Assembly: GCA_016215115.1 (NCBI GenBank)
Contig: JACRLN010000012.1
Span: forward strand, 62,001 to 126,000
Origin: Nitrospirota bacterium
GTDB taxonomy: Bacteria > Nitrospirota > Thermodesulfovibrionia > UBA6902
Direction of reading: 5' to 3'
DNA length: 64,000 nucleotides
Shown: positions 58,205 to 64,000 of the stretch, in pieces
Layout of the letters: each line of letters starts with the position of its first letter
Position numbering within the stretch: the stretch's first letter is position 1
The notes under the pieces: generated by a model
The model's input: the letters and a program-made list of their open reading frames with translations, nothing else
What the model was told of the DNA's origin: nothing
Database searches by the model: none
Made by a program: the position numbers and the translations under genes

Positions 58205-58223
58205 AATAACAGAGTCTTCTGTT

Positions 58224-58262
58224 CCCTCTCCCTTGACGGGAGAGGGTTAGGGAGAGGGTGAT
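58224..58262. repeat. CCCTCTCCC..GGGAGAGGG hairpin repeat downstream of ftsZ
   Basis: CCCTCTCCCTTGACGGGAGAGGGTTAGGGAGAGGGTGA; may also terminate transcription. Confidence 0.75.
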
Positions 58263-58396
58263 GAATGATTGACTTCTTTTTAAACAAATTGTTATAACAT
58301 GGCGTCACCTTAGGGCAAAGCGATATTCATAATATTTTTTTCTGTTATAATTTAAGTATAAGATGTTTTCTCCAATAGATATTGTAGGGTATTTAT

Positions 58397-58966
58397 ATGA
58401 TAGAGACATCCACCATAATTGAAGCAATATACTATCTTCTCAGGAAACTGAAAAAAGCCGATAAAATCAAACTTGTTAAGCTTATATATCTTTCCGATAA
58501 ATATCATCTTATCCGCTACGGAAGAACTATAACGAATGATGATTATTACGCTATGGAACATGGACCTGTTGGTGCCACTGTTAAGGATGTCCTCAGCTTT
58601 GATTCATTCAATATTCCCCCAAAAACATTCAAATATCTCTCTACATTAATTAATAGGTATGATGATAACCATTTCAGTGTGAATCCTGATGCAAAAATCA
58701 CCTTCGACATGTTATCTGATACCGACAAAGAGGCACTGGATTTTGTTATTGAGAAATTTGGCAAGATGGGACAGTGGAAGTTGCGGGATTACACCCATAA
58801 GTACCCTGAATGGTACCAATATAAAGATTTGTTTGAAAATAAGTTAACGAGAAGAGAACGTATCGAGACTAAAGAGCTTTTATCTACATTAAAAGATGAC
58901 CCCTTATCAATGCCTCGCAAACATGTCAAAGAGTCAGAAAAAATTCTGACAGGAAACTTTGACTGA
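58397..58966 (+). CDS. Panacea (SocA-like/DUF4065) domain protein
   Basis: KLVKLIYLSDKYHLIRYGRTITNDDYYAMEHGPVGATVKDVL. Confidence 0.82.
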   Translation: MIETSTIIEAIYYLLRKLKKADKIKLVKLIYLSDKYHLIRYGRTITNDDYYAMEHGPVGATVKDVLSFDSFNIPPKTFKYLSTLINRYDDNHFSVNPDAKITFDMLSDTDKEALDFVIEKFGKMGQWKLRDYTHKYPEWYQYKDLFENKLTRRERIETKELLSTLKDDPLSMPRKHVKESEKILTGNFD

Positions 58967-59175
58967 TTGTGGACTTCCCAGCCCGATTGTGAAGCCTTTT
59001 ATCAAGAAACTGATAAGATACCCGTAAGCAGAAAATATTTCACTAAACATCGTTGCCCTACATTTGCTATAATCTTGTGAATCCATAATTTTCCTCATGC
59101 TAAAGCATCACCTTGCCGATGTTTCAGCAAAATTCTTTGATGGGTAAATTGTAAATTGCGAAAGGAGACATTGAG

Positions 59176-61147
59176 ATGAAAGCTTCTGAAACAAAATTGC
59201 AGCCTATCATTGAAGGAACAAAACAGTATGTTGTTCCTCTTTTCCAACGACCTTATAGCTGGACAAAAAAAGAATGGGAAATCTTATGGAATGATATTGT
59301 TGAACTATGCACTGTTGATAACCCCCGAACCCATTTTGTCGGTTCCATTGTAACAATGCCAACTATATCTGTCCCGGAAGGGGTAACAAAATATTTACTA
59401 ATTGACGGGCAACAGAGGCTTACCACTATTTTTATTTTGCTGGCTTTATTACGTGATAAGGCAAAACATGATGGAGAGGATAAATTGTCTGAAGAAATTA
59501 ATAATACGCTTCTGGTAAACCCATATAAAAGGGACACGGATTTCTACAAAATTCAACCAACTCAGATTGATATGGCATCTTTTCAGAAATTGATTCTTTC
59601 AGAAACAATATCCTCAAAAGATCAAATCGTAGAGGCATACCAATTTTTTGAAAGGAAATTCCGGCAGGCCAATTTAAATATAACCACAATTAAAAAAATT
59701 ATCACAAACAATTTATCGGTTGTGAGCATTGTTCTTGACCTCGAAGATAATCCACATTTGGTTTTTGAAAGTCTTAATGCAAAAGGGCGTCCGCTTACTC
59801 AGGCAGACCTGATACGCAATTATTTTTTCATGAAGATTCATATAAACAAGCAGGAAGTAATTTATTCGAAATATTGGAAACCGATGCAGGATGCACTGGG
59901 CGAGAATTTAACTGAGTTTATAAGGCACTATCTCATGAAGGGGGGTGTGATATAGTAAAACAAAGTGATGTATATTTTTCACTTAAAGATCTTGTTAATC
60001 AAGACAACGCATTAGAGTATCTTGAGAAACTTGCGATTTTTGCCAATTACTATAAAAAACTTCTTTATCCTGAATACGAACCAAATGCTGATATTCAGCG
60101 CTTAGTAAAAAGACTCAATCGCATAGAAGTAACTACAGCCTATCCCTTTTTGTTGAACTTTTATGATGATTATACCCAAAATAGAATTTCCGCAGGAAAC
60201 TTCGTCAATGTGCTGAAAGTAATTGAGAACTTTATGGTTCGTAGATTTGTTTGCAATATTCCTACATATGGGCTCAATAAAATTTTCCCTCCTCTTTATT
60301 CTCAAGTTTATAACATGGAAATGGAAAACCTTGTTGATGGAGTAAAGAAAATACTCCAAACTAAGGGTTATCCAAAGGATATGGAATTCAGAGCAAGATT
60401 GCTTGATGCAAAACTGTATGGCGCGGGTGACAGAGCAGATAAAACCAAGTCAATTCTCGAATCCATTGAAGAATCATATGGACATAAGGAACAGGTGTCA
60501 TTTGATAATCTTTCAATTGAGCACGTCATGCCGCAAACACTGACAGAATGGTGGCAAGATCATCTTGGCAACGAGTGGGAAATAACTCATGAATTGTTGT
60601 TGCATACTATCGGAAATCTCACATTAACTGCATATAATCCTGAACTTTCCAATGACGAATTTGAAAACAAAAAGAATCAATTAATGGAAAGTCATCTCGA
60701 GCTCAACAGGTACTTTCAAGATAAGACCATATGGAAAAAAGAGGACATAGAAAAAAGGGCTGAACACCTTGCAGAAAATTTACTCTCTATCTGGCCTTTT
60801 TTTGGCGATGATACTGCTGAACGGAGAGAGCAAGGAGATGTTACCGGGACAACGCCGAAGGGGCTATGGATTCTTGGTCAAAATTTTAAGGTTCAGACAT
60901 GGCGGGATGTGCTTGAACAGACTATGAATACCATTGCTGATTTAGAGCCTGATAAGTTTGAACAGATTATACAGCAGTTCCCGCGATTTATTGGACGAGA
61001 CAAGAAGAAATTTCGTGCTATAAGAGAATTAAAGACTGGCGCATTTAAGAAGTAAATCTGTCGGCCAAGAGTATTCAAAGCTTTTGTTTTCAAGCCCTTG
61101 AAGCAATAGAACTTACAGCAGATGACTGGCGAGTTGAGACAGAATAA
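59176..61147 (+). pseudogene. GmrSD-like (DUF262 + DUF1524) type IV restriction-like gene, interrupted by two frameshifts
   Basis: N-part 59176-59955 (PLFQRPYSWTKKEWEILWNDI, LIDGQQRLTTIFIL); continues in another frame through 60150-61055 (SIEHVMPQTL, GNLTLTAYNPELSN); third frame 61049-61147 EVNLSAKSIQSFCFQALEAIELTADDWRVETE*. Confidence 0.88.
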
Positions 61148-61315
61148 ATTGAGGAACTGGGCATTGTAATCAACTACGACATCAAATGCCGCATGGGGCG
61201 TGAGAGTGAAGAGGAGTGAACAAACACTCTGTATTAGACTGTTAATTGGAGACAAGTGTTGTAAGACATTTTTTTGGGGACTACACATGACTAATAAAAA
61301 AGGGGGGGAGAATTA

Positions 61316-63328
61316 ATGATAGGCAGGGAAATTAATGGGTTCAAAATTATTGATTCACTTGGTAGCGGCGCTTTCGGGCATACCTATAAAGTTCAAAAAG
61401 GCAGTGAAATCTACGCAATGAAGATTCTCAAGCCGGAAGCCATGAGTTCAGAAATACTGTCGGAAGGATACAAGAGATTTCAGAGAGAAATACGTTCCTT
61501 GCAAAAGGTACAAAGCGATTATGTTGTCGAATATTATGAAAGTGGGGTATGGGTTGATAAAGCTATAGATCACTATTTTATCGTAATGGAATTTGTGGAG
61601 GGTATGGATTTTGCCCAATTTCTTAAACTTCACAGAAAAACCTTTATCAAAGATGAAAATATGATGCAAGGGATTCTGTCACAAATTCTTCAGGGACTAT
61701 ACGATATTCACAATCTGAATATCATACATAGAGACCTGAAGCCTGCCAACATCTACATCACAGATGAAGATAAAGTTAAGTTGCTGGATTTCGGTCTTGT
61801 AAAAATGCTTGATTACAGCACCGTTACAACCAAGGGGAAAATAGTAGGCACACCGCTTTTTATGTCGCCTGAAATGATTGAGGGAAAGACTATTGATTAT
61901 AGAAGTGATCTTTATTCTTTTGGGGTTGTTTTATATTTCATTTTTACACAGGAATATCCCTTCCAGGGTGAAAACGTCTTTGTACTGTTAAATAATATTG
62001 TTAAGCAACAGCCGGCAAGAATTAGTGACAAGTTCCCCGGCATTTCCAATGCACTGGAAAATATCATTTTGAAACTGCTTGAAAAGCAGCCATACTTGAG
62101 ACCTTTCAAAGATGCTTTGGAACTTCGACAGGTTATGCTTGATGTTCCGCTACTACAGGCAGATATACCTTTATACACAATCAAAGATAAATCATTTTCT
62201 CAAAAGAAATATTTTATAAGATTATTGCATACGGAAAAAAATGAGTTGAAACGATTTCTGAATTCAGGAGGCATTGTCGACGGGATTGAATATCCGGCAA
62301 ATTATTTGCCTCAGTATAAAAATCAAATATCAGATATTAAAACATCCAATATCCCTTTTTTCTTTGATCCTTCTACAAACAGGCTGGCCTATTCAAAATT
62401 CTCCGAGACTCAAGGGTTGGTTAATTTGCCGTATGTCTATGACCGCTATAACAGAATTACACCCAGGCATTTATCAAGTATAAAAGATATTCAGAAATAT
62501 GTTTCCGATGTTCTGACATGGCAATTAAAATGGGAAACTGATATTTTGGTATCACCTTTTCATTATTCCCAAAATCTCAGTGATGAATGGCTTTCTGTAG
62601 ATCTTAAGCTGATTGAAGAATGTTTTGAATTTAAAGAGAAACACGGCATCAAAAAAGAATTATTTTCAGGTGTATGTATAGATATTGAAGATTTGACCGA
62701 TGAAGAGAATCGTCTTGAGTTAATAAACAGATATTCCAAGAAACTCCCGGACGGGTTCATTTTTTATGTGAATAATATACATGAAAAGACAACGAATATT
62801 GCTCAGCTTTATGCTTATATTGACATGTTAATAAAATTTAAAAAACTAAAAAGACCATTAATAGCCGCTCGTGTCGGTACGTTAGGTCTGGGGCTTGTAG
62901 AACTTGGAGTTGATTCTTTCTCGTCCGGCATTGCGTCCTTATCAAGCTTTTCAGAGCAAACTCTGTTATCAGACAGACAGTTAGGGTATGATATGGAACG
63001 CAAGTATTATATTAAAGATCTCCTGCTGACCTTAAAAGCTGGATTAACGAGTGAAATTCTGCAGAGGTTTCCGGAATACAGGTGTTCATGCAAATTTTGC
63101 CAAAACGAATATCAATTGGATAAAATTAATAAAAACGCAAAAGCTCATTTCTTGCAAGTTCGTTCTGATGAGATGAAAATGATTAATGATAATAGAAACA
63201 AACCATTTGTTTACTTAGCTAAATCCGCCAAGTCCAGTTTGGATAAGATAAAAAAGAAAGGGATATTGTTGCCGCCATATAATCATATCGATTCATGGAT
63301 AGATGTATTTTCCGAGTTTGCGAGGTAA
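61316..63328 (+). CDS. Ser/Thr protein kinase with a large C-terminal domain of unassigned (TIM-barrel-like?) fold
   Basis: YAMKILKPEAM, IIHRDLKPANIYI, LLDFGLVK, GTPLFMSPEMI; C-terminal ~380 aa not recognised, CSCKFC near the end. Confidence 0.85.
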   Translation: MIGREINGFKIIDSLGSGAFGHTYKVQKGSEIYAMKILKPEAMSSEILSEGYKRFQREIRSLQKVQSDYVVEYYESGVWVDKAIDHYFIVMEFVEGMDFAQFLKLHRKTFIKDENMMQGILSQILQGLYDIHNLNIIHRDLKPANIYITDEDKVKLLDFGLVKMLDYSTVTTKGKIVGTPLFMSPEMIEGKTIDYRSDLYSFGVVLYFIFTQEYPFQGENVFVLLNNIVKQQPARISDKFPGISNALENIILKLLEKQPYLRPFKDALELRQVMLDVPLLQADIPLYTIKDKSFSQKKYFIRLLHTEKNELKRFLNSGGIVDGIEYPANYLPQYKNQISDIKTSNIPFFFDPSTNRLAYSKFSETQGLVNLPYVYDRYNRITPRHLSSIKDIQKYVSDVLTWQLKWETDILVSPFHYSQNLSDEWLSVDLKLIEECFEFKEKHGIKKELFSGVCIDIEDLTDEENRLELINRYSKKLPDGFIFYVNNIHEKTTNIAQLYAYIDMLIKFKKLKRPLIAARVGTLGLGLVELGVDSFSSGIASLSSFSEQTLLSDRQLGYDMERKYYIKDLLLTLKAGLTSEILQRFPEYRCSCKFCQNEYQLDKINKNAKAHFLQVRSDEMKMINDNRNKPFVYLAKSAKSSLDKIKKKGILLPPYNHIDSWIDVFSEFAR

Positions 63329-63332
63329 TTTT

Positions 63333-63968
63333 ATGAAGTATGAGAAAGAAATGATTCCCGTGTTAACGGAATATTTAAATAATCAAAAAGGGTATTCGGT
63401 AATTACTAATGAACTTGATTCAGGCTATGGTATTGCAGATATAGTAGCTACTACTGATTTAAAAGGATTTAATTACCATCCATTTAATAATATATTTGAT
63501 GTTTTTTTATTAAATAATATCCCTTCTAATAAACCTGTTTCGTTTGAAGATATATGGAAAATGTCTTCTTATTCAAAAAAACATTTGAAGTACACAGTAT
63601 TAAAAGATTATATAGAAGGTGGTTTTTTAAAAAAAGATTGCAAAGGATATATGCGCATAAGGAAACTGAAAGTAGATAAAAATCCTATAATTGCCATTGA
63701 AGCCAAGCTGAAAAAATGGAAAGAAGCTTTTTTTCAGACCCAACGATACAAAAAATATGCTGATTTTTGTTATGTCGCTTTACCTGAAAAAATACTGCAA
63801 AATGTGGACTTACATTTATTTAGAGAAAATAATATCGGATTGCTTGCAATATCTCAGTCAAAATCTGTTCATGAGGTACTTAACCCCAAAAAGAATAGAG
63901 ATAAGCATGACCTATATTCAATTTTTGTAAATGGCGTTTTGTTAAAAAACAGCCAGCCGGCTACGTGA
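63333..63968 (+). CDS. PD-(D/E)XK-like nuclease protein
   Basis: SGYGIADIV ... IIAIEAKLKKWKEAFFQTQRYKKYADFCYVALP (D...ExK...Q); wHTH-like insertion between; start ATG 63333. Confidence 0.65.
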   Translation: MKYEKEMIPVLTEYLNNQKGYSVITNELDSGYGIADIVATTDLKGFNYHPFNNIFDVFLLNNIPSNKPVSFEDIWKMSSYSKKHLKYTVLKDYIEGGFLKKDCKGYMRIRKLKVDKNPIIAIEAKLKKWKEAFFQTQRYKKYADFCYVALPEKILQNVDLHLFRENNIGLLAISQSKSVHEVLNPKKNRDKHDLYSIFVNGVLLKNSQPAT

Positions 63969-64000
63969 TCATTAACTCTATTGAATGTCGAGAGAGGATG

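What the first reader, a model, noticed from the sequence alone, without database searches (positions are those of the whole stretch)
61316..63968. Candidate two-gene defence cassette: Ser/Thr kinase with novel C-terminal domain + PD-(D/E)XK-like nuclease
An active-looking kinase (VAIK-type Lys, HRDLKPAN, DFG) is fused to ~380 aa without a recognised family; its alternating strand/helix pattern (LVSPFHYSQNL..., GVCIDIEDL, PDGFIFYVNN, RPLIAARVGTLGLGLVELGVDSFSSG) suggests a TIM barrel, followed by a CSCKFC cluster. The stop is 5 bp from the start of a nuclease-like gene (IADIV...IEAKLKKW) with an internal wHTH-like insert. It lies beside GmrSD-like and Panacea genes. A kinase sensor controlling a nuclease would be a plausible abortive-infection system.
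Basis: partly seen in the sequence, partly recalled or inferred. Interest (0 to 1): 0.78.

Follow-up and report, generated by a model that had tools for sequence, protein, structure and literature searches.

The report
Kinase–TGT-like-barrel–nuclease gene module
These two genes encode an intact protein kinase fused to an unnamed barrel-shaped domain distantly like tRNA-guanine transglycosylase, and an intact DNase-type nuclease; together they are one member of an apparently undescribed gene module, often carrying its own protein phosphatase, that travels between bacteria and archaea on mobile DNA and is probably, but not yet shown to be, a phosphorylation-controlled antiviral system.

Summary
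A 670-aa active-looking Ser/Thr kinase with an unnamed C-terminal half is followed after 4 nt by a 211-aa PD-(D/E)XK nuclease with an inserted winged helix. AlphaFold gives the C-terminal half as a TIM barrel (pLDDT 91). Its best solved-structure match is archaeosine tRNA-guanine transglycosylase (TGT), and the Cys cluster corresponds to the TGT zinc site; the TGT nucleophile Asp is replaced. No Pfam, NCBIfam or PADLOC family matches the barrel. The grouping is conserved: of 62 nuclease relatives found across genomes, 61 have the barrel gene next door (the other contig is cut) and 46 also have the kinase, fused or separate, in many bacterial phyla; Natribaculum (archaea) has it too. All 54 kinases and all 68 nucleases examined keep their catalytic residues. 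Twenty loci add a PP2C phosphatase and three a calcineurin-type one; five replace the kinase with a PIN RNase. The three genes' distances correlate at 0.87-0.93. The window copy sits in a variable ftsZ-proS insertion with GmrSD and Panacea genes. I read it as a mobile, phosphorylation-controlled conflict module, probably antiviral. Function is inferred, and whether kinase or nuclease is the toxic arm is open.

The parts
61316..62155 (+). Ser/Thr (Hanks-type) protein kinase domain, residues 1-280, intact catalytic residues K36, D140, N145, D158
   Evidence: Pfam Pkinase 1.9e-50; residues conserved in 54/54 relatives
62165..63325 (+). TGT-like TIM barrel with C-terminal helices, residues 284-670; no named family
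   Evidence: AlphaFold pLDDT 91.1, pTM 0.90; Foldseek best 1IQ8 archaeosine TGT E=1.6e-5; no family match
62366..62368 (+). Asp351, invariant in 63/63 barrels, at the end of barrel strand 3 (topological counterpart of TGT Asp102)
   Evidence: the equivalence to TGT is by topology, from my knowledge of TGT, not from a superposition
63083..63148 (+). Putative zinc site C590-x-C592-x2-C595-x15-H611
   Evidence: sequence; the cysteine motif is found in 16 of 63 barrels; aligned with TGT zinc cysteines
63333..63968 (+). PD-(D/E)XK nuclease, 211 aa; E27, D36, E123, K125, Q135
   Evidence: AlphaFold pLDDT 95.4; catalytic residues invariant in 67-68 of 68; distant sce7726 similarity
63492..63656 (+). 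Winged-helix insert within the nuclease, residues 54-108
   Evidence: AlphaFold secondary structure; profile matches MarR/Lrp-type wHTH structures; insert bimodal across the family

Best explanation
This is one member of a conserved, horizontally spread module: Ser/Thr kinase, TGT-like barrel and PD-(D/E)XK nuclease, often with a dedicated protein phosphatase. I think it is an antiviral or anti-mobile-element system controlled by reversible phosphorylation. The barrel, derived from a nucleobase/tRNA-handling fold but lacking the TGT nucleophile, acts as the sensor or adaptor: it binds a nucleic-acid or nucleobase cue and is physically coupled to the kinase, to which it is fused here. The cue changes kinase activity; phosphorylation of the nuclease or barrel switches the nuclease on, and the phosphatase, where present, holds or resets it. 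The inserted winged helix tethers the nuclease to DNA. Shown: module conservation, catalytic integrity, predicted folds, mobility. Inferred: defence role, direction of signalling, substrates.
For: Barrel next to the nuclease in 61/62 genome loci and kinase in 46/62; correlated distances r=0.87-0.93; kinase and nuclease catalytic residues intact throughout; PP2C in 20 loci and a calcineurin-type phosphatase in 3; kinase-barrel fusions in 11 members; variable insertion site between ftsZ and proS with GmrSD and Panacea, absent in relatives; plasmid, prophage-like and TniQ-linked copies; restriction-type genes in flanks.
Against: No functional data. Nothing tested shows that the kinase acts on the nuclease. 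In five loci a PIN RNase takes the kinase's place, so the nuclease-barrel core does not need a kinase. Most fused members, including the window, have no adjacent phosphatase. Defence-gene enrichment in the flanks had no matched control. Shared organism ancestry contributes to the distance correlation.
Confidence: 0.45

Rival explanations
1. The kinase is the toxic effector, as in KKP, and the phosphatase its antidote. Nuclease plus TGT-like barrel form the sensing or regulatory core, which can be paired with different effectors: kinase, PIN RNase, and by analogy SIR2-like or RES enzymes.
For: PIN_3 RNase in place of the kinase in five Patescibacteria loci; SIR2-like ORF beside the G061 pair by motif only; RES beside sce7726/sce7725 pairs; KKP precedent in which kinases are the toxin and a PP2C the antitoxin (PMC11341870).
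Against: The nuclease active site is perfectly conserved, unexpected if it is only regulatory; the kinase is fused to the barrel rather than free. SIR2_2 did not match the SIR2-like ORF and sce7725 shows no detectable homology to the barrel.
Confidence: 0.27
2. A regulatory or maintenance module of mobile elements (control of transfer, stability or DNA repair) rather than immunity; the winged-helix nuclease acts on element DNA under kinase control.
For: Several members lie on plasmids, prophage-like contigs and a TniQ-linked element.
Against: Many members are on large chromosomal contigs, presence is very patchy (2 of 296 genomes in the phylum), and flanks include restriction genes.
Confidence: 0.13
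3. The barrel is an active enzyme that modifies a nucleobase in DNA or RNA (DpdA-like), and the nuclease cuts DNA or RNA lacking or bearing the mark: a restriction-modification-like system with a kinase regulator.
For: TGT-like fold, TGT-like zinc site in a subset, invariant Asp351. DpdA is a TGT homologue of a restriction system (PMC12839542).
Against: Position of the TGT nucleophile Asp is Thr/Ser in 50/63; zinc cysteines lost in 47/63; no deazaguanine-synthesis genes were looked for or seen next to the window copy.
Confidence: 0.1

Closest known systems
sce7726 / sce7725 family pair (NCBIfam NF033832 / NF033831), function unknown
   Same: A PD-(D/E)XK-type nuclease gene next to a second conserved gene on mobile DNA, with a third gene (RES) in four of the five plasmid loci read; the nucleases are distantly related (7 of 68 match sce7726, best 8.2e-6; hhalign E=7.6e-5)
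   Different: sce7725 is not detectably related to the barrel; no kinase or phosphatase in the loci read
tRNA-guanine transglycosylase (TGT) / DpdA
   Same: Best fold match (1IQ8); weak profile similarity in register; TGT-like CxCxxC...H zinc site in the window
   Different: Nucleophile Asp replaced; no Pfam TGT match; fused to a kinase
KKP (kinase-kinase-phosphatase) of Pf prophages
   Same: Ser/Thr kinase(s) with a PP2C phosphatase; mobile; antiphage (PMC11341870)
   Different: KKP has two kinases and no barrel or nuclease; here one kinase plus barrel plus nuclease
CapK/CapS immune regulators
   Same: Kinase plus wHTH protein controlling an immune output, sometimes a VapC-like nuclease (PMC13373217)
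   Different: CapK is a GHKL kinase and CapS a STAS-wHTH repressor; not the same families
PD-T4-6 and other single-kinase defence genes; PglW of type 2 BREX
   Same: Ser/Thr kinase domain (PADLOC PD-T4-6 best 1.1e-61); PglW also combines kinase and nuclease domains (PMC12839542)
   Different: PADLOC matches cover only the kinase domain; barrel and nuclease match nothing; no BREX components next to the window copy

Membership tests
PD-(D/E)XK nuclease superfamily | alpha-beta-beta-beta-alpha-beta core | tested here: met
   AlphaFold secondary structure, with wHTH inserted between strands 2 and 3; Foldseek against PDB was not significant
PD-(D/E)XK nuclease superfamily | D...(D/E)-x-K catalytic residues | tested here: met
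   D36, E123, K125 in 68/68
Hanks-type Ser/Thr kinase, active | VAIK Lys, HRD Asp, catalytic Asn, DFG Asp | tested here: met
   54/54 relatives
TGT superfamily (queuine/archaeosine TGT, DpdA) | TIM barrel closest to TGT | tested here: met
   Foldseek top hit 1IQ8, E=1.6e-5, TM 0.51; other TIM barrels follow closely
TGT superfamily (queuine/archaeosine TGT, DpdA) | nucleophile Asp (FDC motif) | tested here: not met
   Ser in the window, Thr/Ser in 50/63
TGT superfamily (queuine/archaeosine TGT, DpdA) | CxCxxC...H zinc site | tested here: inconclusive
   present in the window, cysteines in 16/63 of the family; zinc binding itself untested
TGT superfamily (queuine/archaeosine TGT, DpdA) | sequence match to Pfam TGT (PF01702) | tested here: not met
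   0 of 63 members at E<=0.01
sce7725/sce7726 pair | nuclease scores as sce7726 | tested here: not met
   18.9 bits against a cut-off of 70 for the window; distant relation only
sce7725/sce7726 pair | partner scores as sce7725 | tested here: not met
   no NCBIfam match of the window barrel; profile comparison no better than the reversed control
KKP | PP2C followed by two kinases | tested here: not met
   one kinase at the window, no adjacent phosphatase
Any PADLOC 2023 defence system | barrel and nuclease match a listed component | tested here: not met
   window barrel and nuclease no match; relatives give only weak scattered hits, mostly HTH-bearing models
Antiphage defence system (functional class) | protection against phage | not testable with these tools
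   needs a phage challenge

The most novel reading that the evidence does not exclude
A previously undescribed class of prokaryotic immune module in which a degenerate TGT-like barrel senses a nucleobase or tRNA cue and passes it by reversible Ser/Thr phosphorylation to a nuclease, with interchangeable output enzymes (kinase, PIN RNase and possibly others), present in bacteria and archaea.
Probability: 0.35. Interest if true: 0.88.

Novelty: new variant of a known kind. Interest (0 to 1): 0.7.

Why it matters
A kinase-phosphatase-nuclease module with a TGT-derived partner, conserved from Patescibacteria to haloarchaea and absent from the defence catalogue searched here, would add a phosphorylation-switched arm to prokaryotic immunity and give a role to a degenerate tRNA-modification fold. 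Because the same nuclease-barrel core occurs with a kinase or with a PIN RNase, the swap series is a natural experiment for deciding which component is sensor and which is effector. A member from an enterobacterium (Silvania, L040) could be tested directly in laboratory E. coli.

Tried and rejected
(1) Barrel as an sce7725 relative: profile comparison no better than the reversed control. (2) Barrel as an active TGT/DpdA: nucleophile missing, no Pfam TGT match. (3) Single-protein scans of genome and viral collections with the barrel found nothing; the nuclease alignment worked. (4) First nuclease alignment too diverse for genome contigs. (5) Foldseek for the nuclease gave no significant PDB match. 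(6) Barrel in the phage collection: none. (7) Barrel profile against PDB sequences gave only chance hits, mostly antibody chains. (8) PIN confirmation by PDB sequence search failed but Pfam PIN_3 succeeded. (9) SIR2_2 did not match the SIR2-like ORF of L008, so that label rests on motifs alone. (10) Literature searches found no description of this combination; only open-licence papers are held, so absence is weak evidence. (11) MADS and PD-T4-6 labels from PADLOC rejected as generic kinase-domain matches.

Full report
OBSERVATION. The window holds a 670-aa ORF (61316-63328) and, 4 nt on, a 211-aa ORF (63333-63968) on the + strand. The first begins with a Hanks kinase domain (Pkinase E=1.9e-50) with VAIK-type Lys36, HRD 138-140, Asn145, DFG 158-160 and SPE 184-186. 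Its C-terminal ~385 residues match no Pfam, NCBIfam or PADLOC model. The second ORF has only sub-threshold hits: HSDR_N E=0.026 and sce7726 E=0.0011.

CONSERVATION. tblastn of the C-terminal half against plasmids found a Priestia megaterium kinase (24% identity, E=2e-18), with a relative of the window's nuclease as the convergent neighbouring gene. Further plasmid hits gave Kocuria, Kineococcus and the archaeon Natribaculum; in the last two the kinase and the C-terminal domain are separate genes. A nuclease alignment then found 62 loci in species-representative genomes. Scored with my own HMMs, the barrel gene lies next to the nuclease in 61 of 62 (the remaining contig ends right after the nuclease) and the kinase in 46; 9 loci are cut by contig ends, 5 have a PIN RNase instead, and 2 have neither. 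Of 8 loci in viral contigs, 5 have the barrel, one contig ends, and two lack it (L022, L023). Pairwise distances of nuclease, barrel and kinase correlate at r=0.87-0.93 across 54 loci, no permutation of 1000 reaching that; shared organism ancestry contributes, but the barrel tree mixes phyla. For example a Chlorobiota MAG is sister to a Peptostreptococcaceae MAG, in a clade with the window's copy (94/95 support). Gene orders are PP2C>nuclease> <barrel<kinase; kinase>barrel>nuclease>; nuclease>kinase>barrel>; fusion>nuclease>; nuclease> <fusion. The kinase-barrel fusion occurs in 11 members.

ANATOMY. Kinase: K, HRD-Asp, Asn and DFG-Asp are present in 54/54. Nuclease: AlphaFold model at pLDDT 95.4 has helix-strand-strand-[wHTH]-strand-helix-strand; E27 67/68, D36, E123, K125 and Q135 68/68. 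The distance D36-E123 is bimodal (13-19 or 84-102 residues), so the winged helix is a discrete insert present in the window's form and absent from the kinase>barrel>nuclease> form; its profile matches MarR/Lrp-type wHTH structures. Barrel: AlphaFold pLDDT 91, pTM 0.90, alternating strands and helices of a TIM barrel plus C-terminal helices. Foldseek's best solved structure is archaeosine TGT 1IQ8 (E=1.6e-5, TM 0.51), ahead of generic TIM barrels. The profile of the Cys-bearing members aligns with bacterial TGT at E=0.0011 (reversed TGT 0.36, sce7725 0.46), in a register that puts GVDSFSS on TGT's GxDMFDC; with the confidence threshold lowered, CSCKFC falls on the TGT zinc cysteines. The whole family gives E=0.02. 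These are E-values of single comparisons, so the evidence is supportive rather than conclusive. Asp351 is invariant (63/63) at the end of strand 3, where TGT has Asp102 (topology, from general knowledge of TGT), but the TGT nucleophile Asp280 is Thr/Ser in 50/63. I therefore call it TGT-like, not a TGT.

EXTRA COMPONENTS. In 20 loci a PP2C gene lies directly upstream of the nuclease, or in one case beside the kinase; three examples checked exceed Pfam's cut-off (PP2C_2). Three loci have a calcineurin-type phosphatase found by motif (one checked by Pfam), and the gene after the Natribaculum barrel is another calcineurin-type phosphoesterase. In five Patescibacteria loci the place between nuclease and barrel holds a PIN RNase (PIN_3 over cut-off in all five genomes, at that place). 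Other kinase-less loci have a SocA/Panacea-like gene upstream: Haloarcula 2.9e-5, just under Pfam's cut-off; Arthrobacter 0.019. sce7726+sce7725 pairs carry RES genes, an analogous arrangement.

CONTEXT. In related genomes ftsZ and proS are adjacent (12 bp apart in G010, ~80 bp in G016). In the window the interval carries Panacea, GmrSD and this module, with proS following just beyond the window; a same-genus genome has Panacea plus different genes there. None of the other nine same-genus genomes searched has the barrel, and only 2 of 296 genomes in the phylum do. A same-family genome has barrel fragments with internal stops on a short contig whose end encodes a DNA methylase by motif. A Vibrio member lies about 3 kb from a TniQ gene and one viral-contig member about 1 kb from a terminase small-subunit gene. 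Of 104 flanking proteins scanned, several match restriction specificity subunits, MADS-type, GajA and HNH models at E<1e-15; there was no matched control.

MECHANISM. Shown: a mobile, co-inherited set of catalytically intact kinase and nuclease with a TGT-like barrel, often with a phosphatase. Inferred: that it is antiviral; that the barrel is sensor or adaptor (most conserved companion, ligand-binding fold, nucleophile lost, fused to the kinase); that phosphorylation gates the nuclease. The main rival makes the kinase the toxin, supported by its replacement by a PIN RNase and by KKP, in which kinases are the toxin and PP2C the antitoxin (PMC11341870). The two predict different phenotypes for kinase-dead and nuclease-dead mutants.

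NOVELTY. No PADLOC 2023 model, Pfam 2025 or NCBIfam 2026 family, and no paper found in the open library, covers the barrel or the combination (NCBIfam was run on the window's barrel and on the nuclease alignment, not on all barrels). The parts belong to known kinds, so I rate it a new variant of a known kind; if the defence role and phospho-switch were shown it would be a new class.

Noticed in passing
window 59176-61055: The GmrSD-type gene is read in two pieces (GmrSD_N 59176-59955, GmrSD_C in the ORF at 60150-61055); the reading frame breaks near a run of six G at about 59940-59945. It could be a pseudogene, phase variation or an assembly error.
   Followed up: partly
window 58205-64000 and beyond (ftsZ-proS interval); L145, L150, L153: The ftsZ-proS interval is a variable insertion site in this family: empty in G010 and G016, Panacea plus other genes in same-genus G005.
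   Followed up: partly
L030, L032, L035, L036, L044 (gap between nuclease and barrel): Patescibacteria version carries a PIN_3 RNase gene instead of the kinase.
   Followed up: yes
L008 7068-10487; L010 2387-5215; L011 3006-5242: Kinase-less version: SocA/Panacea-like or unassigned gene, short nuclease without wHTH, then barrel; L008 is followed by a SIR2-like ORF recognised by motif only.
   Followed up: partly
L120, L121, L123, L124: sce7726, sce7725 and a RES-family NAD+ phosphorylase form a recurrent three-gene set on plasmids; function unknown.
   Followed up: no
L007 4750-5336 and 5726-6778: A same-family genome carries barrel fragments 67-76% identical to the window's, with internal stops, close to a DNA-methylase-like ORF.
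   Followed up: no
L034 2217-4990; L019 5192-5722: Module copies lie near a TniQ gene (Vibrio) and near a terminase small-subunit gene (viral contig), suggesting transposon and prophage cargo.
   Followed up: partly
L014 3902-4663; L013 3968-4678: The nuclease gene has no listed gene in the Kocuria and Natribaculum plasmid tables (that table is known to be incomplete), so annotation-based surveys could miss the module.
   Followed up: no
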